A DNA stretch of 25,008 bases. Origin: a virus. Positions within the stretch are counted from its first letter, which is position 1. Every line of letters starts with the position of its first letter. The stretch spans positions 1-25,008 of IMG/VR virus record IMGVR_UViG_3300032299_000162; one strand, written 5' to 3'. The position numbers and the translations under genes were made by a program. This document shows, in pieces, positions 5,238-25,008 of this stretch. The notes beneath the pieces were generated by a model, which saw only the letters and a list, made by a program, of their open reading frames with translations, did not search any database and had not been told where the DNA came from.

Positions 5238-5938
5238 TTCTTTCTCCAAGGTAGTTCGCCGTAGGCTTTTTTCATAACTTCGTTGCCTTCTCTAAACATA
5301 TTAAGTAGTCTTTCGGGTGCTCTGTAATTAACCGTAGCCTCTCCCGTGCATCCGAAGGCAGGCAGAGCTGATGCGGCAGCTTTATAGAATCCCCTGTCTG
5401 CGCCCCATTGACCATAGAAGCTATGTGCCACACGCACCAAATACTCCCGCTTAAAGCAATAACAGTTAGTATCGACAAAATTAAGTGTATGGTCATAATA
5501 TGTCGGGTTCCTACCGAGTGACTCGCAATCATCGTCACAAACATATTGTCCTGATTCATCTACTATTTTCCTTAAGCTGTAAGACCACATCAGGTCTTTT
5601 GATTTAATCTTTTGTAGCAACGTTTCTACATGGTTTGGCTCAAACCAATTGTCCTCATCCAAAAATAGGATGTAATCGGCATTTACCATCAGCGGCATAG
5701 CTGCATAGACTCTGTGTCCATACCAGTTATTAGCACCTACGTTTTCAGGAAGCGTCATAAATGTTGGGCATCCGTGCATACCATCTTCGTGCATAAAGAA
5801 ATCGCTTTCGGCTCTAGACCCATCAAACACAACAAGATGTTCTACAGGAGTATTTATAGTTTGGTCTGTAACGCTTTCAATTGCCTTCAATAATGACTCT
5901 TTCCCAGTAGTCGGGGTGATTACCATGATCCTAGACAT
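5234..5938 (-). CDS. family 2-like glycosyltransferase (GT-A)
   Basis: 234 aa. It opens with the typical nucleotide-sugar-binding strand and turn (MSRIMVITPTTGKESLLKAIESV), then HLVVFDGS (34-41), NVGANNWYGHRVYA, and the metal-binding D94-E-D96-N-W motif in YILFLDEDNWFEPNH. A FVDTNCYCFKREYL acceptor-loop strand and a GQWGADRGFYKAA segment follow. These are standard for GT-A enzymes of CAZy family GT2 and relatives. It has no membrane segment and would act on cytoplasmic substrates. Its start overlaps the end of the 53-aa protein gene by eight bases. It is distinct from, not a copy of, the other GT-A gene at 3940-4692, so two different sugars or linkages are plausible. Confidence 0.8.
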   Translation of the reverse strand: MSRIMVITPTTGKESLLKAIESVTDQTINTPVEHLVVFDGSRAESDFFMHEDGMHGCPTFMTLPENVGANNWYGHRVYAAMPLMVNADYILFLDEDNWFEPNHVETLLQKIKSKDLMWSYSLRKIVDESGQYVCDDDCESLGRNPTYYDHTLNFVDTNCYCFKREYLVRVAHSFYGQWGADRGFYKAAASALPAFGCTGEATVNYRAPERLLNMFREGNEVMKKAYGELPWRKK

Positions 5939-6092
5939 TACTAATATCCCTTTCTTTAATCATGGCATCAGCAATCTCATAGGCACGGGCAACAGCTACC
6001 TGATCCCATGTCTTCTCTGACGTATCAAACTTCCAATCGCCAGCGCAGATACCAGCCATAACTCTTACCGCAAACTCATCTCTTAGGTTCAT
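5931..6092 (-). CDS. small LRDxFA...ADAM family phage protein, 53 aa
   Basis: Translated from ATG 6092 to TAG 5931. It reads MNLRDEFAVRVMAGICAGDW and ends with RAYEIADAMIKERDISNV. The LRD-x-FA opening and (Y/W)E-x-ADAM-x-x-x-R ending also occur in the 60-aa protein at 7802-7984, so the two look like paralogues. Proteins of this pattern are frequent in tailed phages and have no assigned role that I know of. It is predicted to form two helices, soluble, without signal peptide. It overlaps the radical SAM gene upstream by 17 bases and the glycosyltransferase downstream by eight, so it is embedded in the sugar cassette. Confidence 0.7.
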   Translation of the reverse strand: MNLRDEFAVRVMAGICAGDWKFDTSEKTWDQVAVARAYEIADAMIKERDISNV

Positions 6093-6954
6093 ATATTTTC
6101 CTTATGTTGTCGCATGATTTACAGATGCTGCATTTGGTAAAGCCCAGCGCTTCATTGTGGGCAATCAGATCTTGCAAAGGCTTACCTTCAAAAATGTCAC
6201 TATAACTTTGTTCTAGTAAGTTTCCGATGATGTGCTTGAGACTGTAATCCATACAGCATAGGACAACAGATCCATCAGGCAGCAATACGTTGCGGTCATA
6301 AAATGGTGTGCTGCGGCAAGTTAAGGCAAATTCATGCCGCGGAGTTATATGAATATCTTGTGCGCCAATCTGCTCAACGGGAAGACTGTCTGCTCTAGTA
6401 TGACCTTTCCAGCCTGGCAATCGACCAACGATACTTTGCAGCTCTGAAGCTACCAGACCTGATCCATCCATTGTCATAGCGCCTACACCGCACGGAAGGT
6501 TTAGCTGGCTCATTACTTTAAGGTTATCAAGCCATTCCTCAGAACACTTCCAGCCCTTCATGTTGCCATTGGCATCTGGCAGATGGAGCATAACTACTTC
6601 TACCTGATCTGGGTGAGTCTCCAACACCTTCTTGACGCGCTCTGGTTCAGTCATACCATACAGGGTGGTATAGATAGCTACCTTAAATCCTAGGTATAAC
6701 ACCATTTCCAGCATCTGCGTAGCTTCAGGGTTAGCCCAAGGCTCAGACATACCTGAGAAGTCAATGCGAGTATTCTTTGGCAGCTTGGCTAATACTGTCA
6801 TCAGATCTATTGGCTGCATATACTTTGTTCCCGTACCATATTGCGTACGCAAAGCATCTTGTGGGCAAAAGGTACACATCAACGGGCAGCCGATCATGGT
6901 GGTTATTTCCATGACAGGACCATCGTGGTGGACTATTCCATACTTTTCTCTCAT
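6076..6954 (-). CDS. radical SAM enzyme with SPASM/twitch-like C-terminus
   Basis: 292 aa. The canonical iron-sulfur/SAM-binding motif is present as C23-PLM-C27-TF-C30 (CxxxCxxC), followed by a GMSEP segment (68-72) in the place of the GGEP SAM-binding motif. The C-terminal third has CRSTPFYDRN, PDGSVVLCC (cysteines at 233 and 234) and C275-SI-C278-KS-C281, which resembles a SPASM/twitch domain holding an auxiliary iron-sulfur cluster. Radical SAM/SPASM enzymes perform radical chemistry on peptides, sugars or cofactors; the substrate here is unknown. The gene sits between a fucosyltransferase-like gene (ATGA overlap) and a small protein plus GT2 gene, so a sugar or sugar-carrier substrate is the simplest inference. 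The key cysteines are intact, so it is probably active. Confidence 0.9.
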   Translation of the reverse strand: MREKYGIVHHDGPVMEITTMIGCPLMCTFCPQDALRTQYGTGTKYMQPIDLMTVLAKLPKNTRIDFSGMSEPWANPEATQMLEMVLYLGFKVAIYTTLYGMTEPERVKKVLETHPDQVEVVMLHLPDANGNMKGWKCSEEWLDNLKVMSQLNLPCGVGAMTMDGSGLVASELQSIVGRLPGWKGHTRADSLPVEQIGAQDIHITPRHEFALTCRSTPFYDRNVLLPDGSVVLCCMDYSLKHIIGNLLEQSYSDIFEGKPLQDLIAHNEALGFTKCSICKSCDNIRKIYEPKR

Positions 6955-7805
6955 CTCACTATGCTCCTGACAAATGCAATCGCATCGTCTAATTTAGGTT
7001 CTTTTTCTAACAAGGGTTTTTCGTAAATGTATTTATACATTTCGCTGTTGTTGTCCCACCCTCTGACATACTCTACAAAATTACCCATATTTTTTGTTTC
7101 TTGGTAGTTTAAAAAAGCCTTGTAATTAAAGTCTTCAGCTACAGATATGTCACCGCTATAAATAGGCACAGTGCCACCAGCGTAGGCATCAATTAACTTT
7201 TCGGTAATGTAGCCATCATAGATAGAGTTCTCTGGGCATAGGCAGAACTTATAGTCTAGCAGGATCTCAAACTTGGATGTGCGCAGGGAATTACCAAACA
7301 TATTCCCGTAGCCATCTACTTGCTTGTACTTGGACAGGGAGTTGTACAAGTTAACCCTTAGACCTTCAGGATTCCCAGCAATCATGGCACAGAACTTAGT
7401 CTTCTGGCTCATGTCAAGAGTGCGCCCCTTTGTCAGGGAATTAATGGATATAAGGTCTTCATAACCATGATTGTGGGAATTAGATTTGCGTGGCTTTTGA
7501 ATAAATCCAGGCCATGCTAGTCGAGCATACCAGAGAGGCAGCCTAAAATTTCTACCGCCATATGTATCGTAATCAAAAGAAAGGCTGTAATTGTAATTGA
7601 CAAAGCTAGGACGTATATTTTCCCCGATAAAGGAAAGTGTTTTATTCGGGTTTGTATAGACATTTCCGAATACCGAGGTAACAACGAGATCAGCCTCATG
7701 TGGATTATTAGTATAAACAACCCCATCGAAAGCCAAATTAAAAAAGAAATTAAAAAAGTCTCCATCAAAAGCTCCTTCCCAAAAGTTAACTACGCATAGC
7801 TTCAT
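6951..7805 (-). CDS. GT10 alpha-1,3/4-fucosyltransferase-like protein
   Basis: 284 aa. The signature of CAZy family GT10 is clear: KFCLCPENS (186-194), then DGYITEKLIDAYAGGTVPIY (197-216), then DFNYKAFLNY. Earlier FIGENIRPSF (59-68) matches the conserved GEN segment. In this family, as in Helicobacter pylori FucT, the enzyme moves L-fucose from GDP-fucose to GlcNAc-containing glycans; the conserved Glu/Lys of the YITEKL region contact GDP-fucose. Compared with H. pylori FucT (over 400 aa) it is short, lacking the heptad-repeat tail. No signal or membrane segment, so it acts in the host cytoplasm. Strict GDP-fucose specificity is not guaranteed. It is coupled by ATGA overlaps to the radical SAM gene and to the 60-aa gene upstream. 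Confidence 0.88.
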   Translation of the reverse strand: MKLCVVNFWEGAFDGDFFNFFFNLAFDGVVYTNNPHEADLVVTSVFGNVYTNPNKTLSFIGENIRPSFVNYNYSLSFDYDTYGGRNFRLPLWYARLAWPGFIQKPRKSNSHNHGYEDLISINSLTKGRTLDMSQKTKFCAMIAGNPEGLRVNLYNSLSKYKQVDGYGNMFGNSLRTSKFEILLDYKFCLCPENSIYDGYITEKLIDAYAGGTVPIYSGDISVAEDFNYKAFLNYQETKNMGNFVEYVRGWDNNSEMYKYIYEKPLLEKEPKLDDAIAFVRSIVR

Positions 7806-10129: not shown

Positions 10130-10900
10130 TTAAAACAAGCCATCGGCTGAATAAATAATTTCTGTTGGTTGAATTAAGCGCTTGATATTTTCACCTTTGC
10201 AATAAGCCTGAATAGCGCGCTGTAACTTTAAATACTTCTCATGCTTATCGGAATCCCCGCCATTGGTATGGCTTAAGAAATATTCGCGGACAAGAATAAT
10301 AATTCTTTCGTTTGGTTCAGCCATTACTCCATCAAAGAACACTTGTGCAAAACGCTTTAACTTAACAGGATCTTCCTTGTGGTAAGCGGCCATAGTAAGT
10401 GCAGCATGAACGATTGAACTGGTTAAAAACCTACGGTTGCTTACAAAACAATCAGTTGCAAACTCTACATAAGGCTTCATACCAACTAGAAAATCTAGTT
10501 TTTGCATATCAGTCAAGCGCTTTGGATGAGTAATGATAGGCACTAAATTGATATGCTTTGCCTCCATCCAAGGGGCAGCGCCACTAATTTTTACGCCATC
10601 AATCAAACTTCTACGTCTGCCTGAGTCAATGGTCATAGCCACTTCTTTAGATAGGCCTTTGGTAATCATCATATAAACAGGAACATCCGCTTTAATGACG
10701 GCTGACAAACGATGCTGACCATCTGCCAAAGTTCCATCATTATAAAAAGCAATACCTTGGTGGGTAACTTGCCAATCATTATTAAGGATGGCCTTAGACA
10801 AATCTGTTACTGCACGTTCAGAAATGTTTCGGTTTACTGGATTGCTTCCCAACATATTTCTCGCCATGTCTGGCGTAATTTTTACTAACTCCGTTCTCAT
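10130..10900 (-). CDS. ParB/Srx-fold protein (phage type)
   Basis: 256 aa. The DGTLADGQHRLSAVIKADVP segment (residues 55-74, with D60-G-Q-H-R64) is the conserved phosphate-binding loop of the ParB/sulfiredoxin superfamily. A MTIDSGRRRSLIDG segment (89-102) follows. The C-terminal 150 residues are mainly helical and not assigned. ParB-like proteins of this GQHRL type are widespread in phages and plasmids, and individual family members have nuclease, regulatory or DNA-modification roles; none can be assigned here. The ATG at 10900 follows AGGAG and overlaps the upstream stop as ATGA. Confidence 0.85.
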   Translation of the reverse strand: MRTELVKITPDMARNMLGSNPVNRNISERAVTDLSKAILNNDWQVTHQGIAFYNDGTLADGQHRLSAVIKADVPVYMMITKGLSKEVAMTIDSGRRRSLIDGVKISGAAPWMEAKHINLVPIITHPKRLTDMQKLDFLVGMKPYVEFATDCFVSNRRFLTSSIVHAALTMAAYHKEDPVKLKRFAQVFFDGVMAEPNERIIILVREYFLSHTNGGDSDKHEKYLKLQRAIQAYCKGENIKRLIQPTEIIYSADGLF

Positions 10901-12528: not shown

Positions 12529-12555
12529 GGGTAGCCTTCGGGCTACCCTTTTTTT
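12529..12555 (+). terminator. intrinsic terminator with UUCG tetraloop
   Basis: GGGTAGCC (12529-12536), TTCG loop (12537-12540), GGCTACCC (12541-12548) and seven T residues: an ideal rho-independent terminator for rusA. It lies between two convergent genes; its tail overlaps the stop codon of the large minus-strand gene. On the minus strand the stem lacks a U tract, so it probably works mainly rightward. Confidence 0.9.
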
Positions 12556-15500
12556 AATCTTCAAGCTTGGCTATTTGGTCATTAAACCTTTTCATAATGA
12601 CTGCCTTTTGGTTTTCAATCCGCTTAATTCTATCGCTTGGCAGACCTCTTTCAATAAACTCTTTCTTTTGTTTATTTAGCGCGTTGATCTGGTTCTCTGT
12701 AGCATTAGCTGTTTGCCATAGTCTTGCCTGGGGGTTATCTCTTAAATATTGGCCAACAGGTTCTTTGTTTTTAATACGACCTTTAATTTCATTTTCATGG
12801 TCAGCCATATTAATGATGTTGTTATAAAAACGTGATGCTTCAGCAGCATTGGATTGAGTTTCCCCATAAAAACGACCCGCTAAAGGAACGCGATAAGCAG
12901 GAAGATCTTCACCAGTACTGGCAGCCTTAATTGTCTGACCAGTTTTCATAAGTTCACGCCCAACACCACCAGTAACTTGTCCAACTACATAGTCAAGCTC
13001 ATCCGCAGTAGGGCTTATCAAGCCTTTACTGTATTTGCCACCACCAGATGCCATGTTTAAGAAATAAGAAATCTGCTTATTAATTTCGCTTGAGCTTTCG
13101 CGGGAGCGCATATAGCCAGGGGTTGGGTTAGTTGCCTGGTCTTTCTTATAGATTGGTCTACCAAAAGCATCCTTATTTTCTGAAAGAGCAGCCAATGGAT
13201 CTAATACGGTTGGGGCAATACTTTGTAATGGGCCAGCACTACCTACAGGACTTAGGCCATCTGCAAATACACCAATCAAATTGCCAACTTTCTTTGTAGG
13301 ATTTTTTCCACCACTAAGCACAAACTCAGTAGTAAGGCGGCCTACGCTTGGTAGGATATGTAACCCAAGTGGGTATGGAATAGATAGATAATTACCGTCT
13401 GGGGTAGGGATAATAAAGTTACGTTCTTTTACAAACTCTGGAGGCTCATCATCTTTAAATCCAGCAGCTGCCAACAGTAAGGACTGCATAGATCCAAGAA
13501 GAACGCCGCCACCTATAATTGCTTTGCCTTTAGGACCTTTAAGAGTCTGAGCAAGACGAGCAGTACCTTGGATAGATGCGTTAAAGAAAGCATACAGCGC
13601 GTTAATATTGGCAGATAGCTGACCCTTTTTATCAAAGTTAACTGTCAGGTTCTTAGCAATAATGGCTGCCTGTTGTTTAGATAAGCCAAGGCCACCTTGA
13701 TCTTTAGGCTTGCTGGCAGAAAGATAAGCAGATAAACGAATGGCATTTTCTAAGGTGTCATTGAAGTCAGATAACGCACCAAAGACTGCTTTAAATGCCT
13801 TCTTAGCATTGCCACCAGCTGTAATTTTTGCCAGCTGCTCATCAACAATTGACTTTTCGCTTTCCTTACGCGCCAAGGAATCGCGATAACCAGTTTGGCC
13901 ACCCTCTTTCCTGAACTCTCGGAACGCTTTTTCCATGTCACTATCGCCACCAACTTCACCCTTACGTTCAGCGCGCAAGACCTTGAAAATACCCTTCATT
14001 GCAGGAAATATTCCAGCCGTAACTTGAGCCTGTTTACCAGCTAGAGGAGTGGTAGTTAAGTTAAATTGAGCGCCACCAACGTCACGGATTAAGTTGACTG
14101 CAGCAAAGATTGGGTTGTACTGGGTATTGACAGATGCGAACCAGCGGGTAGCCTTAGATACCAAGCTAGTCAATGTTCCCAGGCTTTCTACGTCTAGGCT
14201 TCTTAAAGAATTAGCCATGCGCACTGCATCAGGATTCTTTTGATTAAAAAATATGTAGCGGTTCTTACCATCTATTCTTAGCGTTAAAACATTATCGCCA
14301 AAACGATCAAGATTGTTTACCTTAAGCTTTACGGACTCTGGTGTATCAGTTGTAGGAAGGCCAGTAATCTTATCAATGATTCTCTTTTCCTTACTGATAT
14401 AGCGGCTCTTTGGTTCTTCCATTAAGTTGTTAGCTATTTCTTCAGGATTGTCATACCCAAGGCTTTCCAGCTCTTTAATCAAAGCCTCTTTGCTCTTGAT
14501 CGCATCTGGGTTTACTGGCAAAGCTACATCTGGGTTAGGGTTCATTAAGAACAAACCGTATAGCGCTTTAGTTACAGTCAACTTCTCAGCGCGAATCAGG
14601 GCGCGTTCACGTTGTTTAATTAAGTTAGAAATGATGTCCTGAACTTCTTTTTCAGAACCCATAGCTCGTTTGCTAAAGTTGCCGCTAACGTTGAATCCTT
14701 TACTTAATCCAGTAGCCCCCATGCCATTAATGAAGTTTTCCTCAACACGGAACAATGGTACATAGTGCTTATAGGTTTCATTCCAGGCATCAATAGTGTC
14801 TTGGCTATCTGCTCCAGAGTCCACAAGGATCTTCTGTGTCCCAGTAACCATGTCATCAAACATCTTGGCAACGGTTTCTAAGTTTGCTTTTTTGGCTGGA
14901 TCAAGGTTATCAAGTATTTCTTTAGCCTTGTCAGTAGACATACCAGAAGCACGATCTTGCAGCTCCCAAGGGGTTTTGCGCTCTTCTCCTGTGCGTGGAT
15001 CAAGCTTGTTTAGCTCATTCATCTTGTCGTTACGCTCTTTGGCGTGACGCGCAAGCAGATACTCTTGCATTTCTTGAGGCTTAATATTTAGCTCTTTAAG
15101 CTTTTTAATAGCTGGCAACAACTCATTAAGCAAGTACTCACGAATAGCTGTAGCTACTTTCCCATGGAAAAGCTGTTCTTTTTCGTAAACGTTAATGTCA
15201 TCAGTAATCTGACCAGCCGACTTCAGAATAGCTTGCTGTGCGCGCTTAGTGTCAATCTGCTTATCTTGGAACTTATAGATTAAATTATTGACAGAGACAT
15301 CTGTTACGCCAGGAATATGGAGAAATGTATCTTCTGGGAATTGCCAAGTAGATTGAACTGGCTGGCCTAAGTAGTTACGCGCCTCTGATGGTGGTTTCTT
15401 TTGACCTTCTTCTGAAACAGGCTCTTCTTTTTTGATATTAGATATATCACTAGGAGAGTAATTTTTTAAAGAATATCCTTCATCATAGGCTTGCTTGTTG

Positions 15501-18500
15501 TACTGCATAACCTTGTCAGGAGAGAGTATTGCATCAACATCTTCTCCTCCAGAATAGTAAGAAAATTGTACTGGTAAATATTTATATCCAAGTTTTTCAG
15601 CAGCCATAATTCTATGATTGCCCTCATTAACATAAGGTATTCCTCTAAAATCTACGTTAATGAATGGATAGTAATGCTCTGTATCTTTAGCTCCCTTGCC
15701 AGGTGGAAGCTTATTCTTTTCAGACATGTATCCAAGAATAGAATCTAAGTCTTTTTGACGAACATTATTTTGTTCATCATTGATTCCACGAATATTTTTT
15801 AATATAGATATTGGCAATAGCACTGGTCTAGAAGTATTTGCAACACCCTCTTTAGAAGTAAAACTTCCAGTTGACGGGCCAAACCTACGATATGCACCAG
15901 ATGCTTTTTTACCGCTTTCTCTATTGCGCTCTATCTGATCTTCTAGCCAAGAGCCGCCTGGATTATCTTGATATAAATAAGTTGGCTCTTGCTCTATATT
16001 TGTTAAATCTTCCTTCATTGTTGGGAAGTCATATCCTTCAGTCTGGGCAAGACGCTTCATATCTGCTGGAGTTTGAGCAAAGATCTTCTCAGAAACAATC
16101 ATTATGCGATCAAGCGCTGATTGGTAATCTGGGTTTAGGCCAATTACTTTACGGAAGATTTCCATCAACTTAGTTAAGGCTGTCTTCTTACCCATCTTAA
16201 CCATAGATAAATAAGACTGAACATTCTTTTCTGTTAACGATCTTACAAAAAGTTCGTGAATATCTTTAAGAATAGAGCCATTATTTTTAGATCCAACCTC
16301 ATTTAACAATGGATGCCATTTGTCTCTAGGAGTATTCTTTTTATCAAGCTCTATTGCTGTTTTAACTGCGTTGTATATTGAACGTAGCTCGTTATAAATT
16401 ATTTTATCTGGGCCTTTGTAGTTACGCTTAATCAGTGCATCTAACTGGACTTGGCTGATAACGTGCAACAACTCGTGCAAAAGAGTGCTGTAACGTGTGC
16501 CAGTAGGTGTGCGAGAAACTGGCATACCATCAATAGCATCTTTTGATCCTGAATGTGTTTCAGCTTCGCCCTTAGAGTTCAGTCCATTGTATTGAACTCT
16601 AAAATAACTAATCTTTCTATTTGAGCTAACTGGTAAAGAAGATCCATACCAGGTGTGTCTCTTTGCGCCTTTAAGAATTTCTATTTTTACTGGAACTCCA
16701 GAGTCTTCAATAGCCTTGATGTTAAAAAGAGTTCGTTCCGCAATAGCTTTAGCTGCAGCGTTTGGTGCTGTATCTACCAGATATTGAGCAAGCTGAGAAC
16801 CTTCAGTCATGCCATCAATGTCTTTGGCAATCTGATCCATTGGCCTCTTAGACTGAAATTGCGCTGGTTCTTCTTGATTTTCAGTTGATCTAGTTGCCTT
16901 TTCTGCTTCAAATAGATCTGGCTCTGTTTTCTTAGCAAAAGAATCTTTAATAATCTGGTCTACTGGGCGCTTTGGAACATCGCCAAACATATCTGATCCA
17001 GCTTTACTACCTTCGCTGTAGGCATTGTCAAATAAATTAGATAGGTTTTCACCAATAGCCTTGGCTGAACGCGGATTGTCAGCAAACATCTGCACAATCT
17101 GATTGGCTAAAGGATTGGTGGTAATGTCAGTTTGCTTGGCTGCGTCTTGTAGACTGAGGTTGTTACGTCTGGCATTGATAGCCATCTCTACTGCTTCATT
17201 AACCAGTGGGCGTACATCATAATCGCCAGCATCGCCTAGTCTAATAGCCTTGGCTGCTGCTACGTTTAGGCCGCGAATAATGTTGCGAGCCTCTTCGTCT
17301 TGGGCTTGAAAGCCTAATTCAGTTAATTTGTCATTCCCATAAGCTTGTTGGAAGATGGCTGCATTAAGGCGGTCTACTGCTTGCTTGGTAGGGTTTCCAT
17401 CTTTATCAATCAGATTGCCGCGCTCTGTATCAGGCATAGCCTTAATAAAGTCACGAACTGTCTGTGGGCTTACATCACCAGAGTCATTGAATTGAACGGC
17501 AGAAAGGTCAACGCGGTTAGTATCGTTCTTAGCTTGTTCTACTACGTTAAATGATAGCCCAGCACCAACATTACTAATATCACCAGTATTCTTATTTACT
17601 TTAGCCATAGGCATAATGCGAACCAACATTGGGTTCCGCATACCTTCAATGACTTTTGGATCAATTCCATGCAAATCATCACCCAGTAAAGCTGATTTGT
17701 AATTATCTGCAGTACCTTGACGGTATGCGGCCTGTAGTCCAGCTACGCGCCCGTTAGTAATAGCTCTAAATGCGGGTACGCTTTGGTCAACATAAGCTGG
17801 ATTTTTTGTTCCGTCAGAATTGTGCGATGCAATAACATCACCAGCTTCAATAACTCCATACTGAATTTGTAAGTTATTGCCGTCTGATCCAGTAAGGACA
17901 TCTGTTCTACCTAAATGAGTAGGATCAACTTCACCACCAGCTACAACTGGTGCGCCTGTGCCGTAGTCACGGGACATACTGACTCGGTTGTAATCAGGTT
18001 CATTAGCAATCTTAGCCATCTGAGCTATAGAAGCTGGGGTAGACCTATCTCGGTTCTGGATGCTTTCCCAGATATTTCCTTTTTCTGGTTCTGAAATAGG
18101 TGTTATATCAGTTGGAGCTGGAGGTGCTGGAGGAGTAGGTTCTGGTTCAATTGAAGGTGGAGCAGGTGGAGATGGTGGTTTTCCACTTAACTCATCAATC
18201 ATTGCCTGAGTATCTTGGGATGTAGAAGATGGGGCAACTACTGGAGGAACTCCACCTTCTGGAGGAGTAACTGGAGGAGTTACAGGCGGTTTAACTGTTG
18301 GGGCTTCTGCACCTGGACCGCGTACACCTACGGTTGCACCAGTTAATGCTCCAACTGCTGCATCACGGGCAGCAGCACCAGCAACGCCTTCAAACGTACC
18401 AACGTCCATGCCTTGTTTTTGCAGGGCGCGGTTGATTGCCAATTGTTCTTGACCGCCTTGTACACCCTCTAATGGAGCTTCAGCTAGGGCAGCTTTACCC

Positions 18501-19327
18501 ATACGGCTTGCAAGTCTTGCATCAAGCTTTGCTGCAGCGCCAGGGGTTAATAGATTTTCTACACCAACACGAGCACCAGCGCCACCTAACACAGCACCAG
18601 CAGCTATATCTAAGAAATTTTCGCCTAAATATTCTTGAGCTTTTGAGGCTCTAGCAGCAGCCTCTTGAGGATTCATCCCTGATTTTTCTAGCTCTTGCTT
18701 AACTCCATCATACAAAGAACCTTTAACAGCGCCAGTGCCTTGGGCAGTGCCTACAACTGTATTGATTGCTTTAACGGTAGGTCCACCGAGCTTGGCTATG
18801 CCACCAATGATACCTGTACCAACGTATGGAACTATAGAGCCTAAACCTTGCGCAAGAGATTGAACTGGGGCTTCAGCTACACCTGCCAAGAAAGCGCCTA
18901 TTTCATCGCTTATAGAACCCTTAGAAGCTTGTTTTTGCAAAGCCTCTCTACGAGCCATTTCAGCTTTACGCTCTGGCGAGTATTGTTCAGCAAGACCTTT
19001 TGTAACCTCGCCTAATGCCTGTGATGCTGCGTTATCAGCGCCAAATACATCTGTTAAGGATTTGCCAGCACCAACAATCCCTGTGCCAAAAGCAATGGCT
19101 GTATCTTTAGCTGAAAATCCAGCGTTAACAGGAGGCTGTTCAATGGGTTGGGTAGGTTGTTTGGCAGCGTCATATCTGCCAAGTTCATCTGGAACTGCAC
19201 CAGTTAAATTGCCAGTAGCTTGGGCGGGTTTATATGCCTGATACCTTTTTAAAAGGTCAGCTTGAGTGACGTTGTCAGGGACCCCACTAATGATGGTCCC
19301 ATCTGGCATTTGCACATCTATTGGCAT
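12554..19327 (-). CDS. giant polyvalent virion protein (ParB-like modules, metallopeptidase motif, LPD38-like)
   Basis: 2257 aa, uninterrupted. The opening (DVQMPDGTIISGVPDNVTQ) is common at the start of very long phage proteins. A glycine-rich hydrophobic stretch lies at about 140-260, then a Pro-rich linker (about 342-410). Around 455-560 is a ddrB-type ParB-like domain (IASHNSDGTKNPAY, AITNGRVAGLQAAYRQG). At 951-955 is HELLH, a zincin-type metal-binding motif. A second ParB-like module spans about 1160-1270 (NEGNHRIMAAEKLGYKYLPV). From about 1700 to 2150 is an LPD38-like region (SVNTQYNPIFAAVNLIRD; IPYPLGLHILPSVGR) with a hydrophobic segment near 1935-1957. The end is a charged coiled coil. 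Such proteins are thought to be packaged and ejected with the genome. ATG 19327 has AAAGG upstream. Confidence 0.8.
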   Translation of the reverse strand: MPIDVQMPDGTIISGVPDNVTQADLLKRYQAYKPAQATGNLTGAVPDELGRYDAAKQPTQPIEQPPVNAGFSAKDTAIAFGTGIVGAGKSLTDVFGADNAASQALGEVTKGLAEQYSPERKAEMARREALQKQASKGSISDEIGAFLAGVAEAPVQSLAQGLGSIVPYVGTGIIGGIAKLGGPTVKAINTVVGTAQGTGAVKGSLYDGVKQELEKSGMNPQEAAARASKAQEYLGENFLDIAAGAVLGGAGARVGVENLLTPGAAAKLDARLASRMGKAALAEAPLEGVQGGQEQLAINRALQKQGMDVGTFEGVAGAAARDAAVGALTGATVGVRGPGAEAPTVKPPVTPPVTPPEGGVPPVVAPSSTSQDTQAMIDELSGKPPSPPAPPSIEPEPTPPAPPAPTDITPISEPEKGNIWESIQNRDRSTPASIAQMAKIANEPDYNRVSMSRDYGTGAPVVAGGEVDPTHLGRTDVLTGSDGNNLQIQYGVIEAGDVIASHNSDGTKNPAYVDQSVPAFRAITNGRVAGLQAAYRQGTADNYKSALLGDDLHGIDPKVIEGMRNPMLVRIMPMAKVNKNTGDISNVGAGLSFNVVEQAKNDTNRVDLSAVQFNDSGDVSPQTVRDFIKAMPDTERGNLIDKDGNPTKQAVDRLNAAIFQQAYGNDKLTELGFQAQDEEARNIIRGLNVAAAKAIRLGDAGDYDVRPLVNEAVEMAINARRNNLSLQDAAKQTDITTNPLANQIVQMFADNPRSAKAIGENLSNLFDNAYSEGSKAGSDMFGDVPKRPVDQIIKDSFAKKTEPDLFEAEKATRSTENQEEPAQFQSKRPMDQIAKDIDGMTEGSQLAQYLVDTAPNAAAKAIAERTLFNIKAIEDSGVPVKIEILKGAKRHTWYGSSLPVSSNRKISYFRVQYNGLNSKGEAETHSGSKDAIDGMPVSRTPTGTRYSTLLHELLHVISQVQLDALIKRNYKGPDKIIYNELRSIYNAVKTAIELDKKNTPRDKWHPLLNEVGSKNNGSILKDIHELFVRSLTEKNVQSYLSMVKMGKKTALTKLMEIFRKVIGLNPDYQSALDRIMIVSEKIFAQTPADMKRLAQTEGYDFPTMKEDLTNIEQEPTYLYQDNPGGSWLEDQIERNRESGKKASGAYRRFGPSTGSFTSKEGVANTSRPVLLPISILKNIRGINDEQNNVRQKDLDSILGYMSEKNKLPPGKGAKDTEHYYPFINVDFRGIPYVNEGNHRIMAAEKLGYKYLPVQFSYYSGGEDVDAILSPDKVMQYNKQAYDEGYSLKNYSPSDISNIKKEEPVSEEGQKKPPSEARNYLGQPVQSTWQFPEDTFLHIPGVTDVSVNNLIYKFQDKQIDTKRAQQAILKSAGQITDDINVYEKEQLFHGKVATAIREYLLNELLPAIKKLKELNIKPQEMQEYLLARHAKERNDKMNELNKLDPRTGEERKTPWELQDRASGMSTDKAKEILDNLDPAKKANLETVAKMFDDMVTGTQKILVDSGADSQDTIDAWNETYKHYVPLFRVEENFINGMGATGLSKGFNVSGNFSKRAMGSEKEVQDIISNLIKQRERALIRAEKLTVTKALYGLFLMNPNPDVALPVNPDAIKSKEALIKELESLGYDNPEEIANNLMEEPKSRYISKEKRIIDKITGLPTTDTPESVKLKVNNLDRFGDNVLTLRIDGKNRYIFFNQKNPDAVRMANSLRSLDVESLGTLTSLVSKATRWFASVNTQYNPIFAAVNLIRDVGGAQFNLTTTPLAGKQAQVTAGIFPAMKGIFKVLRAERKGEVGGDSDMEKAFREFRKEGGQTGYRDSLARKESEKSIVDEQLAKITAGGNAKKAFKAVFGALSDFNDTLENAIRLSAYLSASKPKDQGGLGLSKQQAAIIAKNLTVNFDKKGQLSANINALYAFFNASIQGTARLAQTLKGPKGKAIIGGGVLLGSMQSLLLAAAGFKDDEPPEFVKERNFIIPTPDGNYLSIPYPLGLHILPSVGRLTTEFVLSGGKNPTKKVGNLIGVFADGLSPVGSAGPLQSIAPTVLDPLAALSENKDAFGRPIYKKDQATNPTPGYMRSRESSSEINKQISYFLNMASGGGKYSKGLISPTADELDYVVGQVTGGVGRELMKTGQTIKAASTGEDLPAYRVPLAGRFYGETQSNAAEASRFYNNIINMADHENEIKGRIKNKEPVGQYLRDNPQARLWQTANATENQINALNKQKKEFIERGLPSDRIKRIENQKAVIMKRFNDQIAKLED

Positions 19328-19336
19328 AACTAGCCT

Positions 19337-21568
19337 TTAGCTGGGGAGTTGACTAAATGGTACTACCTTATTTTGAGCAGGTGCTTGCGGCTTGCTGCTA
19401 CCAAATAACGAACTAAAGAAACCTTTTTTCTCTGGCTCTGCTGGGAATTGTACATTAGCTGGAGCAACAAATGGGCGTTTAATACCAACTTGGTCAAAAT
19501 AAGATTTCTTAATTGAATTAATGGCATCGTTGTAAGCGTTATATCTCTCTGTTCCTGGAGTTTCCATGTCGCGCTGCTTAATCAATTGAGGTATTTGATC
19601 GTCTTGATTAATCATTGCTTGAACTTTAAGGATAGCGCGCTCTTCACCGCTAGGAGCATTAGCCATTGCAATAGATTTTGCATCTTTATTGCCTTGGATT
19701 TGCAATAAAGTACCAGCTAACTGCAGTCTACGAGCATCATCTTTAGCTGCGCCTTCTGCGTCTAACTTAGCCAATTCACGCTTCAAGGCGCGCTCTGACG
19801 CAACATCTTTTTGGTAAGTATTAAGAAGATCAATTCCAGCATTACCTATGTTTGGAGACATATATGGCGATGTGCCAGATAACATACCTAAACCAAGACG
19901 GGTAAAGTATTGATTGGCACGGCTCTCTTTGCTGTCTTTAATGTCTTGTAGCAATTCTTGACGCGCTACACTATCAGTTTCTGCTGCTGGTCTAGCTTGG
20001 CCTAACAAGCTTAAAGCTGCTTTATTTAGATCAACATTACCCTTTTTATCGGTGTACTGAGAAAGATAGTCATCATTAGATTTGGATTGAACAAAGCTGC
20101 CATCAGTGTTTCCAGCAAACGCCACAATGCCACCACCAGCTGCACGGAACATATCTCCAGAAGGAATGGTATCTAAACCACCGCCTAGAATTTGGCGTGA
20201 CTGTGGGTTGTTCTGTATTCTTGCGCGATCAAGTAATTCTTTTTCAATTGCAGCAATTTGCATTGGATCAACGTTAGGATTACGCAACATTGGCGAAAGA
20301 TTCTGTGTTGGAATAAGATCAACGTCACCGCCAGCCCTGTAATTAACTGTACCGCCTTCGGCATAACCTTTTGACTTTTTAAAGTCTTTTGGCAATCCGC
20401 CAGATGCTCCAACCATACCTTGAGCAAGGCTTGAATCTATTCCCTCTAATGGAACATAACTACCACCACCACTGCCAGCCAAATTAAAATCATATCCACC
20501 GCCACCGCCACCGCCTTTACCCCACCAGCCAAGGTCTTTACCCATGCCATACATACCAAGACCAGTAAAGCCAAGGCCAGCTATTTGAGATAAGTAATTT
20601 GGAGGAGCTTGGAAGCCTTGTTGAGTAGATTGGCTTACTGGCAATCCACCCATCATGCTTTGCATAAACTGTACATTTTCAAATGGTTGCTTGTATTGCT
20701 GATTTGCAATCTGATTCTGCAGTGCAATCTTAGCCAACTCATATTGACCTTGTTGAGCGCCAATGTTACCTAGTGCAGCGCCAGCTTGAGTAGCGCCTTG
20801 ATAGCCTTGTTGAGCACCTTGAACGCCTTGCAGACCTAAACCAGCACCACGCATACCAGTATCTAAGCCAGCTAAACCAGCGGACGTACCTTGCATTGCA
20901 CCTTGTAAACCAAGCGTAGAACCAAACTGTTGAGCTTGTTGAGCATTTTTGAACGCTTCGTTATAACCCTGTCCAATAGCTTGTTGTTTAGCTAAAGCGT
21001 AATTCTGGTTGTTTAATCCTTGTGCCAAAGTAGCACGATTGCCACCAAAAGCGCCTTGACCAGTAGCTTTACCTGCAATATCTTGTGCGCCTAATGCTTG
21101 TTGTTGATTAAGCAACGATAGTTGCGGAGCAAGCGACTGTTGCAAATAAGGGTTCATATAAGCACCAACCGCATATGGGTTAGTTGCTTGATTGGCATAG
21201 TTAGAACCAGCGTTCATGCCATAGTTCATACCCTGTGCGCCAATACCAATACCTTGTGAACCTATGCCAGCACCCATTTGGCCATAGTTCAAAGCCATAG
21301 GAGCTGTAGATAAAGCGCCTTGACCACCTTGGTTTGCTAGACTTGATCCTTGTCCAAACTGTTCTGGCATACCCATATTCTGGGCGCTAGAAGCTACTTG
21401 GTTTTGAAATGCGCTAGGTGCAGAAGTGCTTAAATTTTGAGCACGTTGCAAGTAGCTAGAGACGTAAGGTTGCGCCCAAGGCGCTATGCTTGATGTCGAA
21501 ATTAATTGTGAAGTAGGGTTAGATGGAACACCGCTAGAGCCTAATACTGAATCTAAAAATGAAGCCAT
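19337..21568 (-). CDS. low-complexity virion/tail protein, 743 aa, Gln/Gly/Ala-rich
   Basis: Begins MASFLDSVLGSSGVPSNPTS and then IAPWAQPYVSSYLQRAQ, an opening common in structural proteins of short-tailed phages. Residues about 60-310 are rich in Gln, Gly, Ala, Asn and Leu with quasi-repeats (GLQGAMQGTSAGLAGL, GLGLQGVQGAQQGYQGAT). The middle has a Gly-rich stretch (GKGGGGGGGYDFN), then YAEGGTVNYRAGGDVDLI and AAGGGIVAFAGN. The last 200 residues are helical and charged (ALKRELAKLDAEGAAKDDA). It has no enzyme motif. It lies between the 687-aa and 2257-aa virion genes, three bases after the upstream stop, with a good AAGGAT site. By position it corresponds to one of the P22 ejection proteins (7/20/16); this is inference. 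Confidence 0.7.
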   Translation of the reverse strand: MASFLDSVLGSSGVPSNPTSQLISTSSIAPWAQPYVSSYLQRAQNLSTSAPSAFQNQVASSAQNMGMPEQFGQGSSLANQGGQGALSTAPMALNYGQMGAGIGSQGIGIGAQGMNYGMNAGSNYANQATNPYAVGAYMNPYLQQSLAPQLSLLNQQQALGAQDIAGKATGQGAFGGNRATLAQGLNNQNYALAKQQAIGQGYNEAFKNAQQAQQFGSTLGLQGAMQGTSAGLAGLDTGMRGAGLGLQGVQGAQQGYQGATQAGAALGNIGAQQGQYELAKIALQNQIANQQYKQPFENVQFMQSMMGGLPVSQSTQQGFQAPPNYLSQIAGLGFTGLGMYGMGKDLGWWGKGGGGGGGYDFNLAGSGGGSYVPLEGIDSSLAQGMVGASGGLPKDFKKSKGYAEGGTVNYRAGGDVDLIPTQNLSPMLRNPNVDPMQIAAIEKELLDRARIQNNPQSRQILGGGLDTIPSGDMFRAAGGGIVAFAGNTDGSFVQSKSNDDYLSQYTDKKGNVDLNKAALSLLGQARPAAETDSVARQELLQDIKDSKESRANQYFTRLGLGMLSGTSPYMSPNIGNAGIDLLNTYQKDVASERALKRELAKLDAEGAAKDDARRLQLAGTLLQIQGNKDAKSIAMANAPSGEERAILKVQAMINQDDQIPQLIKQRDMETPGTERYNAYNDAINSIKKSYFDQVGIKRPFVAPANVQFPAEPEKKGFFSSLFGSSKPQAPAQNKVVPFSQLPS

Positions 21569-21571
21569 GAT

Positions 21572-23635
21572 TTATCCTTTTGGTAAAAACTTAGATGGTT
21601 TGATTTGTTTGCCCTGTTTTTTGTTTCCAGTACGGGCCTTACGAATACGATCCATCATTGCGTATAACTGTTTAGCGCCAGCGTCAGTAGAGCCGTTGCC
21701 GAGATGAGAAACCACATCCGCAGGAATAACAAATTCCCCATCAGCCAGACGAGCAGGCTGCTTATTAGAAATAGTGGCAGGAATATTGTCAGACATACCA
21801 TCGCCAGGACCTTTAAGCAAACGTCCACCATCTGAGTATCCTCCTAAATGCCCTATGTCAGCTATGCCGCCTTGAGCAAAAGGCATTGTATAGTTTGCTG
21901 CAACCGCGTAATCTTTACTTCTTCCTGGCATAGATTTAATTGCTCGTTGTAGGCTTATATCAAAAGTAGGATCATATTCAGATTCTTTACTTGACCTATA
22001 ACCAATATCCATCATTCCTGGGTTAGCTAAAATCTTTTTATCAGGAGTCATCATTGCATTTCCTGATAATCCTGCGCGCACATTGCCACCAAAAGCTTCT
22101 GAGTTTACGCCTAAACGACCACTTACAGATGGAGGAGGGGTCATAAGTCCAAGACCTTCTACATATTGAGCTGAAGGAACGTCAAACCTTGCATTAATTT
22201 TATCTAATAGTTCGGCTCTTCTTTGGCTTTCCAAAAGATCTTCTACCATTCTTGGTATATTACTTTCAGAAGATCCTTTAATATTGTTTCTTATTCTTTT
22301 TAGAATTTGTTCTTCCGTGTCAGCTTCAGCTTGGCCGCCACCAGACATTTCTTTTGCGCCTCTATCTGGTGCAAACTCAGACAACTTTGACATCGTAATT
22401 TGAGGCATTAAGTTTGCCCAAGGAGTCTTTTCATATCCAGAAGTTATTGGCAATCCACTTCTATATGCTGAACCTGGATTAAAGGCATTATCACCTGCGT
22501 TTGGGTTAAGTCCTTGACCAGAATATCTTTGTTGATTGCTGCCACCCAATTGGTTTATTAATGAGTTTGCCAATAAAGCTCCACGAACTGTATTTAATGC
22601 AGTGCTTCCACCGCCACCAGCAGCTGCTCCACCAGCTCCAGATGCACCAGCTGTACCAGCTCCAGCTGTACCAGCTCCAGCTGCACCAGCTGCGGTATAT
22701 GCTCCAGGAGCAATAGTAAAACTAGCGCCACTTCCAGCGGCAGGAACAAATGCTCCACCGCCAGTTAAACCAGCAGCTCCAGCAGTTTCTAGCGCACCAG
22801 CAGCGCCAGCAGCAGGAGCAAAATAGGCTGCAGCAGCACCGCCTCCTAAAATAGCAGCTATGGTAAGGTAATCTTGAGCAGTCATGCCCATAGCACCACC
22901 ACCAGATTTTTGCTGGTTAATAATGCGGTTTTGGTTTTGTATGTTAGCAGATTGGCTGCTATTGCCTAATATGCTATTAATTTCATCTTCGCTAAGACCA
23001 GCTTTTTTTGATTGTTCAATTTGATCTTGAATCACTGGTAGTCCAGCTTCATTTCTTTCAGATCTGTTTTGCCCAATTTGCCACCCTTGTTGGTGACCTA
23101 ACCAAGACAGTTGATTTCTATTCCATTGTGCTGGGTCTACTTCTTTTAACTCTGAAAACTGTTTCCATGTAGGCTCATAGTTTTCGTTGGCATTATATTG
23201 ATCCTTTAATGATTGGCCCAAAGCATTCATCAATTCAATCTTATATTGCTGAGGATCAGCCTCTTTTAAAGCATTTAAAGATTGTATTTTGTTTGAGTCA
23301 CTTAAAGTTTCATAGGATAGATTGTTAAGATCTGGGTTACCAAATGTAAAGTCATTTTCGGGTGCTTGTACTTGGCTGCCATCTTCACCGTCAAAACGAG
23401 GAATACTAGCTATACCGCCAGCTCTAAATGGTTGTGCGGGTAAACCCGTATACGCATTAGTTCTGGCATCATAGTCAGATTGAATAGTCTGAGCGCTGGT
23501 AGGCAGCTGGTTTGATACAGCGTACTGAGTTCTGTCCATTTGGGACTGTGGAAACATAGAATTTCTCGCCAGACGGTCAATTCCTGTCAGGCCAGCACCT
23601 TGCAAATTCTGTTGAGTAATGGAATCTAAGCCCAT
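21572..23635 (-). CDS. low-complexity virion protein, 687 aa, with Ala/Gly repeat and C-terminal GGRLLKGPGDGMSD motif
   Basis: Opens MGLDSITQQNLQGAGLTGID, followed by a hydrophilic helical part with FRAGGIASIPRF. Residues about 270-350 are almost entirely Ala, Gly, Thr and Ser (AGTAGAGTAGASGAGGAAAG region) encoded by a 15-bp tandem DNA repeat. The C-terminus has FAQGGIADIGHLGGYSDGG, then GPGDGMSDNIPATI and LADGEFVIPADVVSHLGNGS, ending with a Lys-rich tail. That C-terminal block is shared by many short-tailed phage virion proteins whose function is not assigned to my knowledge. No signal peptide or transmembrane helix is evident outside the Ala/Gly segment. Starts 38 bases after the 101-aa gene. 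Confidence 0.7.
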   Translation of the reverse strand: MGLDSITQQNLQGAGLTGIDRLARNSMFPQSQMDRTQYAVSNQLPTSAQTIQSDYDARTNAYTGLPAQPFRAGGIASIPRFDGEDGSQVQAPENDFTFGNPDLNNLSYETLSDSNKIQSLNALKEADPQQYKIELMNALGQSLKDQYNANENYEPTWKQFSELKEVDPAQWNRNQLSWLGHQQGWQIGQNRSERNEAGLPVIQDQIEQSKKAGLSEDEINSILGNSSQSANIQNQNRIINQQKSGGGAMGMTAQDYLTIAAILGGGAAAAYFAPAAGAAGALETAGAAGLTGGGAFVPAAGSGASFTIAPGAYTAAGAAGAGTAGAGTAGASGAGGAAAGGGGSTALNTVRGALLANSLINQLGGSNQQRYSGQGLNPNAGDNAFNPGSAYRSGLPITSGYEKTPWANLMPQITMSKLSEFAPDRGAKEMSGGGQAEADTEEQILKRIRNNIKGSSESNIPRMVEDLLESQRRAELLDKINARFDVPSAQYVEGLGLMTPPPSVSGRLGVNSEAFGGNVRAGLSGNAMMTPDKKILANPGMMDIGYRSSKESEYDPTFDISLQRAIKSMPGRSKDYAVAANYTMPFAQGGIADIGHLGGYSDGGRLLKGPGDGMSDNIPATISNKQPARLADGEFVIPADVVSHLGNGSTDAGAKQLYAMMDRIRKARTGNKKQGKQIKPSKFLPKG
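22636..22695. repeat. 15-bp tandem repeat inside the 687-aa gene
   Basis: CTGTACCAGCTCCAG occurs twice in a row (22651-22665 and 22666-22680) with degenerate copies on either side. It encodes the AGAGT repeats of the virion protein. The repeat is in frame (15 bp equals five codons), so copy-number changes would not break the protein; this is a likely hypervariable site by slippage. Confidence 0.75.
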
Positions 23636-23673: not shown

Positions 23674-23979
23674 CTAAACCTTAACTTTCAAAACATTAGC
23701 GTTAGAGGTATCAACATAAACATCACCTATTCTGAGGCTTGATATTTCAACCTGAGTTGGCAAGCTCAAAACTTGAACGCCAGTAGCATTGGCTTGGCTA
23801 AAATTAAGGGCAGAAACCACCCTATTACCCGTTCTTAGGGTAGACATAGCACAAACACCAGGGGTATCTAGCTGGGAAAAGTATAGGCGCAAGACGTTAT
23901 TAAGCTGGTCTTGGTACTGTTGGCTATATTCAACAGGAGCAATAGGTAAGTTAGGGGCTTGGGTTGTTCCAGTACTCAT
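23674..23979 (-). CDS. small virion-associated protein, 101 aa
   Basis: Begins MSTGTTQAPNLPIAPVEYSQ followed by QYQDQLNNVLRLYFSQLDTP, a pattern common among small proteins next to short-tailed phage tail genes. The C-terminal half is beta-rich (VQVLSLPTQVEISSLRIGDVYVDTSNANVLKV). There is one cysteine. Its ATG (23979) overlaps the tail-protein stop as ATGA. No known function; the neighbour context suggests a tail-tip, adaptor or assembly component. Confidence 0.65.
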   Translation of the reverse strand: MSTGTTQAPNLPIAPVEYSQQYQDQLNNVLRLYFSQLDTPGVCAMSTLRTGNRVVSALNFSQANATGVQVLSLPTQVEISSLRIGDVYVDTSNANVLKVKV

Positions 23980-25008
23980 CTTCTGCCATCATTCTTAATG
24001 TCAATACGAGGTGCGCCTAACTGCCAAGCCACGCCTAAACCATTTGAGCTAATCTTAAATGCCATCTGCCGACCACGCAAACGGGTATATACCTGACCAG
24101 TAAACTCTTGAACCGTATACTGTGGGTATACAGAATAGTTGTTAGAACTGGTAACTCCAGGAGTATCAGAATCTCCATACGCAGATCCACTGTTATAACG
24201 TGGCTGTAGTGTCATAGTTACTGCTGGCTGGTTTACATTTGAGCCGTTAAAGTTAATGTCTGGCAATATCCTCCAGACTAATCCAAAGTTATGACCATCG
24301 CCAATATCAAAGTCAGAAGACTGCACATAGGCGGTAATAGGCAATGTTGTGGCTGTAGACTGGTCATCGTTACCAAGTTCATGGTAATTGATATTTCCAG
24401 TAGGATTACCTACATCATCAGCGCCATTAATAAATGCCCCCATAGGATTCTGACGAATACCAGAGTCTAGCCAAGCAGTACGGTTTAGAGTACCGTAATA
24501 CCATACACGATCCAAATAGTTATAAATAATGTATTTGTCAATTACCGTGCTGTTAGTAGAACAATAAAACCACCAAATTTCGTTGTAGCCTTCATTACCG
24601 CCAACAGTAACCTGATAACCTTGGTCTTTATTAATGTCCGCAAAAACATATTGACGCAGCGCACAAGGCAAAGTTTCCACACGGCCTGAGTACATATAGA
24701 ACTTATCAGCACCCATCCAATAAGTAACGTTATTAATGGTAATTGCCGCATTAGGAGAAATGATAGAAATGTTATCCATCAAGATTTGAAATCCCCAAAC
24801 ATAAGGAGGCCCAAGATATTGCATAGAATAGATAGCCGAATCAGTCCATACCAAGATCTCTTGGCGAGTAGCCTTGGCTGACATAATGTATGAGCCGTTT
24901 GATAGGCGGAATTCACCAGATTGATTTGTGATTGCGGGAACCCATTCATATGGATTTTCTTGATCTGACCAGCGTACAAGCATAGGATCAAACGGTGTAG
25001 CTGGATCA
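23976..25008 (-). CDS. tail protein resembling P22 gp10 (packaged-DNA stabilisation/tail hub), partial at 5' end
   Basis: 343 codons are visible; the frame continues past the right edge (DPATPFDP precedes the first in-frame Met at 24983), so the N-terminus is missing. It is beta-rich with repeated short strands, as expected of a propeller-like tail protein: MLVRWSDQENPYEWVPA, EILVWTDSAIYSMQYLGPPY, ITINNVTYWMGADKFYMYSG, LRQYVFADINKDQGY and EIWWFYCS. The W-S-D...P-x-E-W phrase and the Trp/Tyr-rich blades recall the P22 gp10 stabilisation-protein family; this is from memory of family appearance, not a search. The stop overlaps the 101-aa gene as ATGA. A different tail component (hub or fibre adaptor) is possible. 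Confidence 0.6.
   Translation of the reverse strand, partial: DPATPFDPMLVRWSDQENPYEWVPAITNQSGEFRLSNGSYIMSAKATRQEILVWTDSAIYSMQYLGPPYVWGFQILMDNISIISPNAAITINNVTYWMGADKFYMYSGRVETLPCALRQYVFADINKDQGYQVTVGGNEGYNEIWWFYCSTNSTVIDKYIIYNYLDRVWYYGTLNRTAWLDSGIRQNPMGAFINGADDVGNPTGNINYHELGNDDQSTATTLPITAYVQSSDFDIGDGHNFGLVWRILPDINFNGSNVNQPAVTMTLQPRYNSGSAYGDSDTPGVTSSNNYSVYPQYTVQEFTGQVYTRLRGRQMAFKISSNGLGVAWQLGAPRIDIKNDGRR

What the first reader, a model, noticed from the sequence alone, without database searches (positions are those of the whole stretch)
12554..19327. 2257-aa polyvalent protein with two ParB-like modules, a metallopeptidase motif and an LPD38-like region
A single protein of more than 2200 residues appears to combine a ddrB-type ParB-like domain (about 455-560), an HELLH zincin motif (951-955), a second ParB-like module with EGNHR (about 1233) and an LPD38-like region with a hydrophobic segment (about 1935-1957). 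Such a protein would be carried in the virion and ejected, with possible nuclease, protease and membrane-channel roles. The domain combination is not one I can name as established.
Basis: partly seen in the sequence, partly recalled or inferred. Interest (0 to 1): 0.6.

Follow-up and report, generated by a model that had tools for sequence, protein, structure and literature searches.

The report
Modular phage protein injected into bacteria
The gene makes a 2,257-residue viral protein of a known kind that is probably packed in the virus particle and injected into the bacterial host, with fixed ends and interchangeable enzyme-like modules in between, including a protease fold and two ParB-type folds.

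Summary
Pfam finds a ddrB-type ParB domain (421-571) and LPD38 (1960-2149). HELLH (951-955) lies in a true zincin fold: both His, the catalytic Glu and a third ligand (E1025) are invariant in 13 relatives, and the closest fold is the HExxH domain of N4's ejected RNA polymerase. EGNHR (1235-1239) lies in a ParB/sulfiredoxin/SerK fold that Pfam does not catalogue. A hydrophobic helix (1935-1956) is conserved.

It belongs to an established class: phage "polyvalent proteins" (Iyer 2017). Homologues of its parts occur in virions (JC1 gp69, P1 DdrB). Its gene sits 9 nt behind a DNA-ejection-protein gene at the end of the late operon.

New here: relatives share residues 1-58 and about 1314-2257, with sharp, recurring DNA breakpoints, but swap the interior. 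The slot between zincin and C-terminal module holds the second ParB fold here and an ADP-ribosyltransferase in four relatives. I found the exact four-part combination nowhere else. Most likely: an ejected protein with a conserved C-terminal delivery module, self-processed by its zincin to release payload domains. Packaging rests on homologues and context; processing and activities are inferred. No channel was shown.

The parts
12554..19327 (-). Giant gene, 2257 codons, ATG start, minus strand
   Evidence: start 9 nt downstream of the preceding gene
19154..19327 (-). N-terminal constant block, aa 1-58 (MPIDVQMPDGTIISGVPDNVTQADLL...)
   Evidence: DNA similarity ends at aa 58-59 in L002, L003, L005 and L009; profile match in about 20 relatives
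18248..19120 (-). Gly/Ala-rich region, aa 70-360 (100 of 291 residues G or A), variable among relatives
18068..18247 (-). Pro-rich linker, aa 361-420
   Evidence: composition
17228..18067 (-). ddrB-type ParB region, aa 421-700 (Pfam core 421-571; NGRxAGL motif at 525)
   Evidence: PF18763 E 8.6e-16; phage P1 DdrB match E 9e-15
15998..16810 (-). Zincin metallopeptidase module, aa 840-1110
   Evidence: 13 relatives, H951, E952, H955 and E1025 invariant; AF2 model; N4 gp50 C1 domain Z 7.8, other zincins; 9sfn_G E 5.9e-25, 8vb2_A E 6.6e-4
16463..16477 (-). HELLH motif, aa 951-955
16253..16255 (-). E1025, putative third zinc ligand
   Evidence: invariant in 13 relatives; in a later helix after the HELLH helix
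15449..15973 (-). Second ParB/sulfiredoxin-fold module ('ParB2'), aa 1119-1293
   Evidence: 10 relatives; Srx, SerK, SbnI, ParB, Noc; E 0.05 to SbnI by sequence profile
15611..15625 (-). EGNHR motif of ParB2, aa 1235-1239
   Evidence: invariant in all 10 relatives
12557..15379 (-). C-terminal constant module, aa 1317-2257 (begins at RNYLGQPV), candidate packaging/delivery module
   Evidence: DNA similarity begins at aa 1308-1320 in five relatives; 98 complete homologues keep a 900 +/- 22 aa C-terminal module; AF2 pLDDT 87, pTM 0.84
13460..13525 (-). Conserved hydrophobic helix, aa 1935-1956
12881..13450 (-). Pfam LPD38 domain, aa 1960-2149
   Evidence: PF18857 E 4.4e-39
19337..21568 (-). Upstream gene, 743 aa, DNA-ejection-protein-like
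   Evidence: phrog_4287 E 0.0047 here; orthologues L009 E 2e-6 and L010 E 1.5e-11
23976..24983 (-). Virion structural protein gene of the same operon (phrog_3287), cut by the window edge
   Evidence: E 1e-50
12529..12548 (+). Terminator-like hairpin between the convergent RusA gene (+) and the end of the giant gene (-)
   Evidence: consensus match only

Best explanation
The gene encodes a phage-type polyvalent protein: an internal virion protein packed with the DNA and ejected into the host. Its constant ends (aa 1-58 and about 1314-2257) most likely handle packaging and exit with the ejection apparatus; the C-terminal module carries LPD38 and one conserved hydrophobic helix. The interior is a payload: a DdrB-type ParB domain (probably DNA-directed, protecting or acting on the incoming DNA as in the P1 Dar system), a zincin, and a second ParB/sulfiredoxin-fold domain in a slot that close relatives fill with an ADP-ribosyltransferase. 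The zincin probably cuts the chain in cis next to the slot, freeing the payload. Shown here: modules, folds, catalytic-residue conservation, operon position, cassette exchange. Inferred: virion location in this phage, zinc binding, self-processing, and the activity of both ParB-fold domains.
For: Operon: the gene lies 9 nt behind a DNA-ejection-protein-like gene and after structural genes, and the order is kept in relatives. Homologues in virions: JC1 gp69 (4515 aa, carries LPD38; 51 unique peptides in purified virions, PMC9144972), linked through BcepIL02's DarB-like protein at E 7e-42 to this C-terminus; P1 DdrB in the head (PMC9024508). Zincin: invariant HExxH plus Glu; best fold match is the C1 domain of N4 virion RNA polymerase (PMC12633501); sequence-profile matches to the solved virion proteins 9sfn_G and 8vb2_A. 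HExxH occurs in the N-terminal part of 64 of 98 complete homologues and in the C-terminal module of none. Cassettes: breakpoints at aa 58-59, 1107-1111 and 1308-1320; ART-PolyVal in place of ParB2 in L005, L174, L002 and L009; ParB2 before the zincin in L003.
Against: No proteomics on this phage, which is a 25-kb metagenomic fragment. N4 virion RNA polymerase has the same kind of zincin but is packaged unprocessed (PMC5512222), so cleavage may not occur. No cleavage site was identified. The C-terminal module has no detected solved relative, so its delivery role rests on position and homologues.
Confidence: 0.66

Rival explanations
1. The zincin is not a self-processing enzyme but an effector that cuts a host protein (or helps open the envelope) after ejection; the protein stays in one piece, like N4 virion RNA polymerase.
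For: N4 virion RNAP is packaged uncut although it has an MPTase (PMC5512222). The zincin's structural neighbours include lethal-factor-type zincins and PPEPs, which cut other proteins. Its sequence relative in PhiM1 lies inside a tetrameric ejection protein that is not reported as cut (PMC11440229).
Against: HExxH is present in about two thirds of homologues whatever their other payload, which suits a shared processing role better than a specific host target. It directly borders the exchangeable slot.
Confidence: 0.35
2. The whole protein is mainly a structural ejectosome component (as T7 or P22 gp16) that forms or lines a trans-envelope conduit; the enzyme-like domains are secondary or relict.
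For: Last gene of the ejection operon; a conserved hydrophobic helix in the C-terminal module; a large, coherent, mostly helical C-terminal module.
Against: Catalytic residues of zincin and ParB2 are invariant in relatives, which is not expected of relicts. Interior modules are exchanged for other enzymes (ART-PolyVal, SLT, HATPase, RadC, PBECR1). No match to solved ejectosome proteins was found for the C-terminal module (inconclusive).
Confidence: 0.25
3. ParB2 is not a nuclease but an NTP-dependent switch or small-molecule kinase (SerK/SbnI-like) that alters host metabolism or binds DNA.
For: Nearest solved folds are sulfiredoxin, free serine kinase and SbnI, together with CTP-binding ParB/Noc. 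The ParB fold binds ATP, GTP or CTP in varied fusions, phage ones included (PMC12704722).
Against: Resemblance of fold only: Z 5-6 and E 0.05 by sequence. Nothing here separates nuclease, kinase and switch.
Confidence: 0.45
4. The protein is not in the virion and acts inside the producing cell during late infection.
For: There is no direct virion evidence for this phage.
Against: Homologues were detected in purified virions (PMC9144972, PMC9024508); position in the structural operon.
Confidence: 0.1

Closest known systems
Phage-type polyvalent proteins (Iyer et al. 2017, PMC5512222)
   Same: Many disparate domains in one chain; MPTase, DdrB-ParB and LPD38 are all listed members; encoded beside virion genes
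   Different: ParB2 is a further ParB/Srx-fold family without a Pfam model; the exact order ddrB-zincin-ParB2-LPD38 was seen only here among the loci examined
Burkholderia podophage JC1 gp69 / BcepIL02 DarB-like protein (PMC9144972)
   Same: Homologous C-terminal module with LPD38 near the C-terminus; virion protein by mass spectrometry; last large gene of the morphogenesis module
   Different: 4515 aa with lytic transglycosylase, methylase and helicase payload; C-terminal identity only 24-26% in BcepIL02 and its relatives
Phage P1 DdrB (PMC9024508, PMC5512222)
   Same: DdrB-ParB domain plus an MPTase in one protein found in the head
   Different: Smaller (109 kDa); separate from the LPD38 module; myophage; 23% identity over the ddrB region
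Coliphage N4 virion RNA polymerase gp50 (PMC12633501)
   Same: Giant ejected protein with an HExxH domain of the same fold (Z 7.8)
   Different: Carries an RNA polymerase; its large C2 domain is reported as without structural homologues, and no match to it was detected here
Stx-phage/Traversvirus and Methanosarcina virus MetMV giant proteins
   Same: Share the C-terminal module at 29% and 39% identity
   Different: Different, longer N-terminal parts (2800 and 3006 aa ORFs; the Traversvirus one is annotated with LPD5)

Membership tests
Phage-type polyvalent protein | Two or more domains of disparate activity in one chain, from the catalogued set (MPTase, DdrB-ParB, LPDs) | tested here: met
Phage-type polyvalent protein | Encoded among late/virion structural genes | tested here: met
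Phage-type polyvalent protein | Packaged in the virion and transferred to the host | not testable with these tools
   Only homologues: PMC9144972, PMC9024508
Zincin-like metallopeptidase | HExxH on one helix and a Glu ligand on a following helix, behind a small beta sheet | tested here: met
Zincin-like metallopeptidase | Zn binding and peptidase activity | not testable with these tools
   needs purified protein
DdrB-like ParB domain (PF18763) | Score above the Pfam gathering threshold | tested here: met
   58.6 bits against a cut-off of 27.6
ParB/sulfiredoxin superfamily (for ParB2) | Fold with a GxxR-type motif in the pocket strand-helix turn | tested here: met
   (Z 5-6, rmsd 2.7-5.0, 74-93 residues)
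ParB/sulfiredoxin superfamily (for ParB2) | Score above threshold with a curated sequence family (ParB_N PF02195 etc.) | tested here: not met
   no Pfam match up to E 0.1; phrog_1033 ParB only E 0.019. Filed by fold only, as an uncatalogued family
LPD38 (PF18857) | Score above the Pfam gathering threshold | tested here: met
   135 bits against a cut-off of 27
Podophage ejection protein (T7 gp16 / P22 gp16 type) | Encoded last in the nozzle-ejection gene block | tested here: met
Podophage ejection protein (T7 gp16 / P22 gp16 type) | C-terminal module shares the fold of solved ejectosome proteins | tested here: inconclusive
   no listed match; the model is large and helical

The most novel reading that the evidence does not exclude
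The 900-940-residue C-terminal module is a general, structurally uncharacterised protein-delivery module of podophage-like viruses, with a payload bay directly upstream. A zincin on the N-side of that bay releases whichever enzyme it holds (ParB/Srx-fold here, ADP-ribosyltransferase in relatives) into the host at the start of infection, so phages exchange early effectors as cassettes without changing the delivery parts.
Probability: 0.35. Interest if true: 0.65.

Novelty: new member of a known kind. Interest (0 to 1): 0.4.

Why it matters
Polyvalent proteins were defined in 2017, but how they are delivered and processed is mostly untested. Here the constant and exchangeable parts can be drawn to within about ten residues, and a slot is seen in which one enzyme fold replaces another between the same neighbours. 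That gives a defined construct for testing self-processing and the role of each payload domain.

Tried and rejected
A combined alignment of all three payload modules misplaced the ParB2 rows onto the ddrB region and was not used; a smaller set aligned correctly. The iterated zincin profile gave spurious extra matches inside the C-terminal module; these were ignored because no HExxH occurs there in 98 proteins. Foldseek/VIA against PDB for the C-terminal module gave only short helical-bundle matches, which I read as no information, not as a new fold. A sequence-profile search of PDB with the C-terminal alignment gave only ferritin at E 0.3. No paper could be found for 9sfn. Composition shuffles showed that the hydrophobic segment is not significant in this one sequence; conservation was used instead. 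I considered and dropped 'not expressed/pseudogene': the 2257 codons are open and close relatives encode the same module series (L005, L174).

Full report
What is there. The interval holds one uninterrupted 2257-codon gene on the minus strand; the plus strand is closed. The stated motifs are at the stated residues, within two positions: HELLH 951-955, EGNHR 1235-1239, hydrophobic stretch 1935-1956. Pfam recognises ddrB-ParB (421-571, E 8.6e-16) and LPD38 (1960-2149, E 4.4e-39) and nothing else.

The zincin is real. Thirteen relatives keep both histidines and the glutamate of HELLH, and a glutamate at 1025 on a later helix. An AlphaFold2 model of aa 840-1345, built on 38 sequences, has pLDDT around 90 or above across most of both folded domains. 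In it, three strands precede the HELLH helix, and E1025 lies at the start of a later helix. The best structural match is the C1 domain of N4 virion RNA polymerase (Z 7.8, 181 residues, rmsd 4.2), followed by lethal-factor-type zincins and PPEPs. Z values of this size are common for any model; here the match is backed by the invariant catalytic residues. By sequence profile the module matches two proteins solved in virions: 9sfn_G 'internal virion protein' (E 5.9e-25) and the PhiM1 tetrameric ejection protein 8vb2_A (E 6.6e-4).

The second ParB module is real but uncatalogued. Ten relatives keep EGNHR and an upstream EQxNVR motif. The model matches sulfiredoxin, free serine kinase, SbnI, ParB and Noc (Z 5-6), and the profile touches SbnI exactly at the motif (E 0.05). 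Pfam has no model for it. Whether it is a nuclease, an NTP switch or a kinase cannot be told from these data.

The C-terminal module. It is predicted with confidence as one large, mostly helical unit (pLDDT 87, pTM 0.84). It has 77 predicted viral relatives at E below 1e-3, several annotated with LPD38, LT_GEWL, RelA/SpoT or a methylase, and no detected solved relative. In 98 non-redundant complete proteins the module is 900 +/- 22 aa and sits at or near the extreme C-terminus, while what precedes it ranges from 77 to 3294 aa. HExxH occurs in the preceding part of 64 of the 98 and in the module itself of none. Chance would give a few percent (my estimate from typical His and Glu frequencies).

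Cassette exchange. DNA comparison with close relatives shows similarity stopping at aa 58-59 (L002, L003, L005, L009) and resuming at aa 1308-1320 (L002, L003, L009, L005, L174). L005 and L174 also share the ddrB-zincin block, which ends at aa 1107-1111. The stretch they lack, aa 1108 to 1308/1314, is the ParB2 module. In its place they encode an ADP-ribosyltransferase (ART-PolyVal; L174 E 2e-43, L005 E 1e-8), and the same family occupies the position between zincin and C-terminal module in L002 (E 5e-22) and L009 (E 5e-16). L002 is 89% identical to the window over the C-terminal module yet lacks ddrB and ParB2. In L003 ParB2 stands before the zincin instead of after it. Other relatives carry SLT and HATPase or RadC, LPD1, LPD5, MuF_C and PBECR1. 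The four-part order ddrB-zincin-ParB2-C-terminal module was found only in the window among all loci fetched. That is a statement about these loci, not about all phages.

Setting. The gene starts 9 nt after the end of a 743-aa gene whose orthologues match the DNA-ejection family phrog_4287 (E 0.0047 here; 2e-6 and 1.5e-11 in L009 and L010). A virion structural gene (phrog_3287) lies further upstream in the same operon, and the order is kept in relatives. A convergent RusA gene and a terminator-like hairpin follow.

Virion carriage. No proteomics exists for this metagenomic fragment. JC1 gp69, a 4515-aa protein with LPD38 near its C-terminus, gave 51 unique peptides from CsCl-purified virions (PMC9144972). 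The close Bcep22-like protein of BcepIL02 matches this C-terminus at E 7e-42. P1 DdrB was found in the head with 39 unique peptides (PMC9024508) and matches the ddrB region here at E 9e-15. N4 RNA polymerase, whose HExxH domain is the nearest fold, is ejected (PMC12633501).

How it most likely works. Packaging with the DNA and ejection through the tail are supported by homologues and context. Release of payload by the zincin was proposed for the class by Iyer et al. (PMC5512222); here it is supported only by the zincin's position beside the exchanged slot and by how common HExxH is across homologues. N4 polymerase, which is packaged uncut, is a direct counter-example. The payload's function (anti-restriction or DNA-directed for the DdrB domain; unknown for ParB2) is inferred. 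A channel role is not supported beyond one conserved hydrophobic helix.

Novelty. The class, its protease, its DdrB-ParB domain and LPD38 are known (PMC5512222). What is added is an uncatalogued ParB/Srx-fold family, a mapped exchangeable slot, and a confident model of a widespread module without a detected solved relative. I rate it a new member of a known kind, interest 0.4.

Noticed in passing
PDB 8vb2 chain A (PhiM1 gp48), residues 377-514; not in the window: The zincin profile matches the PhiM1 tetrameric ejection protein with HEAAH and a downstream Glu. Its paper calls the domain at 268-528 endolysin/exotransglycosidase-like (PMC11440229); it may be a metallopeptidase instead.
   Followed up: partly
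L012 (MK170447.1) 15001-17604: The closest named relative of the C-terminal module (39% identity) is a virus assigned to the archaeon Methanosarcina from metagenome data only, by CRISPR spacer, abundance and k-mers (PMC7164591). Iyer et al. note that archaea have few polyvalent proteins.
   Followed up: partly
window 3940-7805 (-): Sugar/radical-SAM cluster: an Anp1-like gene (below Pfam's cut-off), a family-2 glycosyltransferase, a radical SAM/SPASM protein and a family-10 (fucosyltransferase-like) glycosyltransferase. Unusual for a short-tailed phage; may modify virion or host surface.
   Followed up: no
window 1640-2479 (-) and 10130-10900 (-): Two further proteins with weak ParB-like matches (PF02195 E 7e-5, below the curated cut-off; phrog_12305 E 0.0017), so ParB-type folds recur in this genome.
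   Followed up: no
98 complete homologues of the C-terminal module: HExxH motifs occur upstream of the module in 64 of 98 but only a minority match the window's zincin profile, so several different metallopeptidase families may occupy this position.
   Followed up: no
window 1-25008: The record is a linear 25-kb viral fragment: the helicase gene at 3-1466 and the structural gene at 23976-25007 run off its ends, so terminase, portal and capsid genes are not visible.
   Followed up: no
window 21572-23635 and 19337-21568 (-): The two genes upstream of the giant gene match no Pfam family; a short stretch near 21644-21850 is conserved at the DNA level in all ten relatives compared.
   Followed up: no
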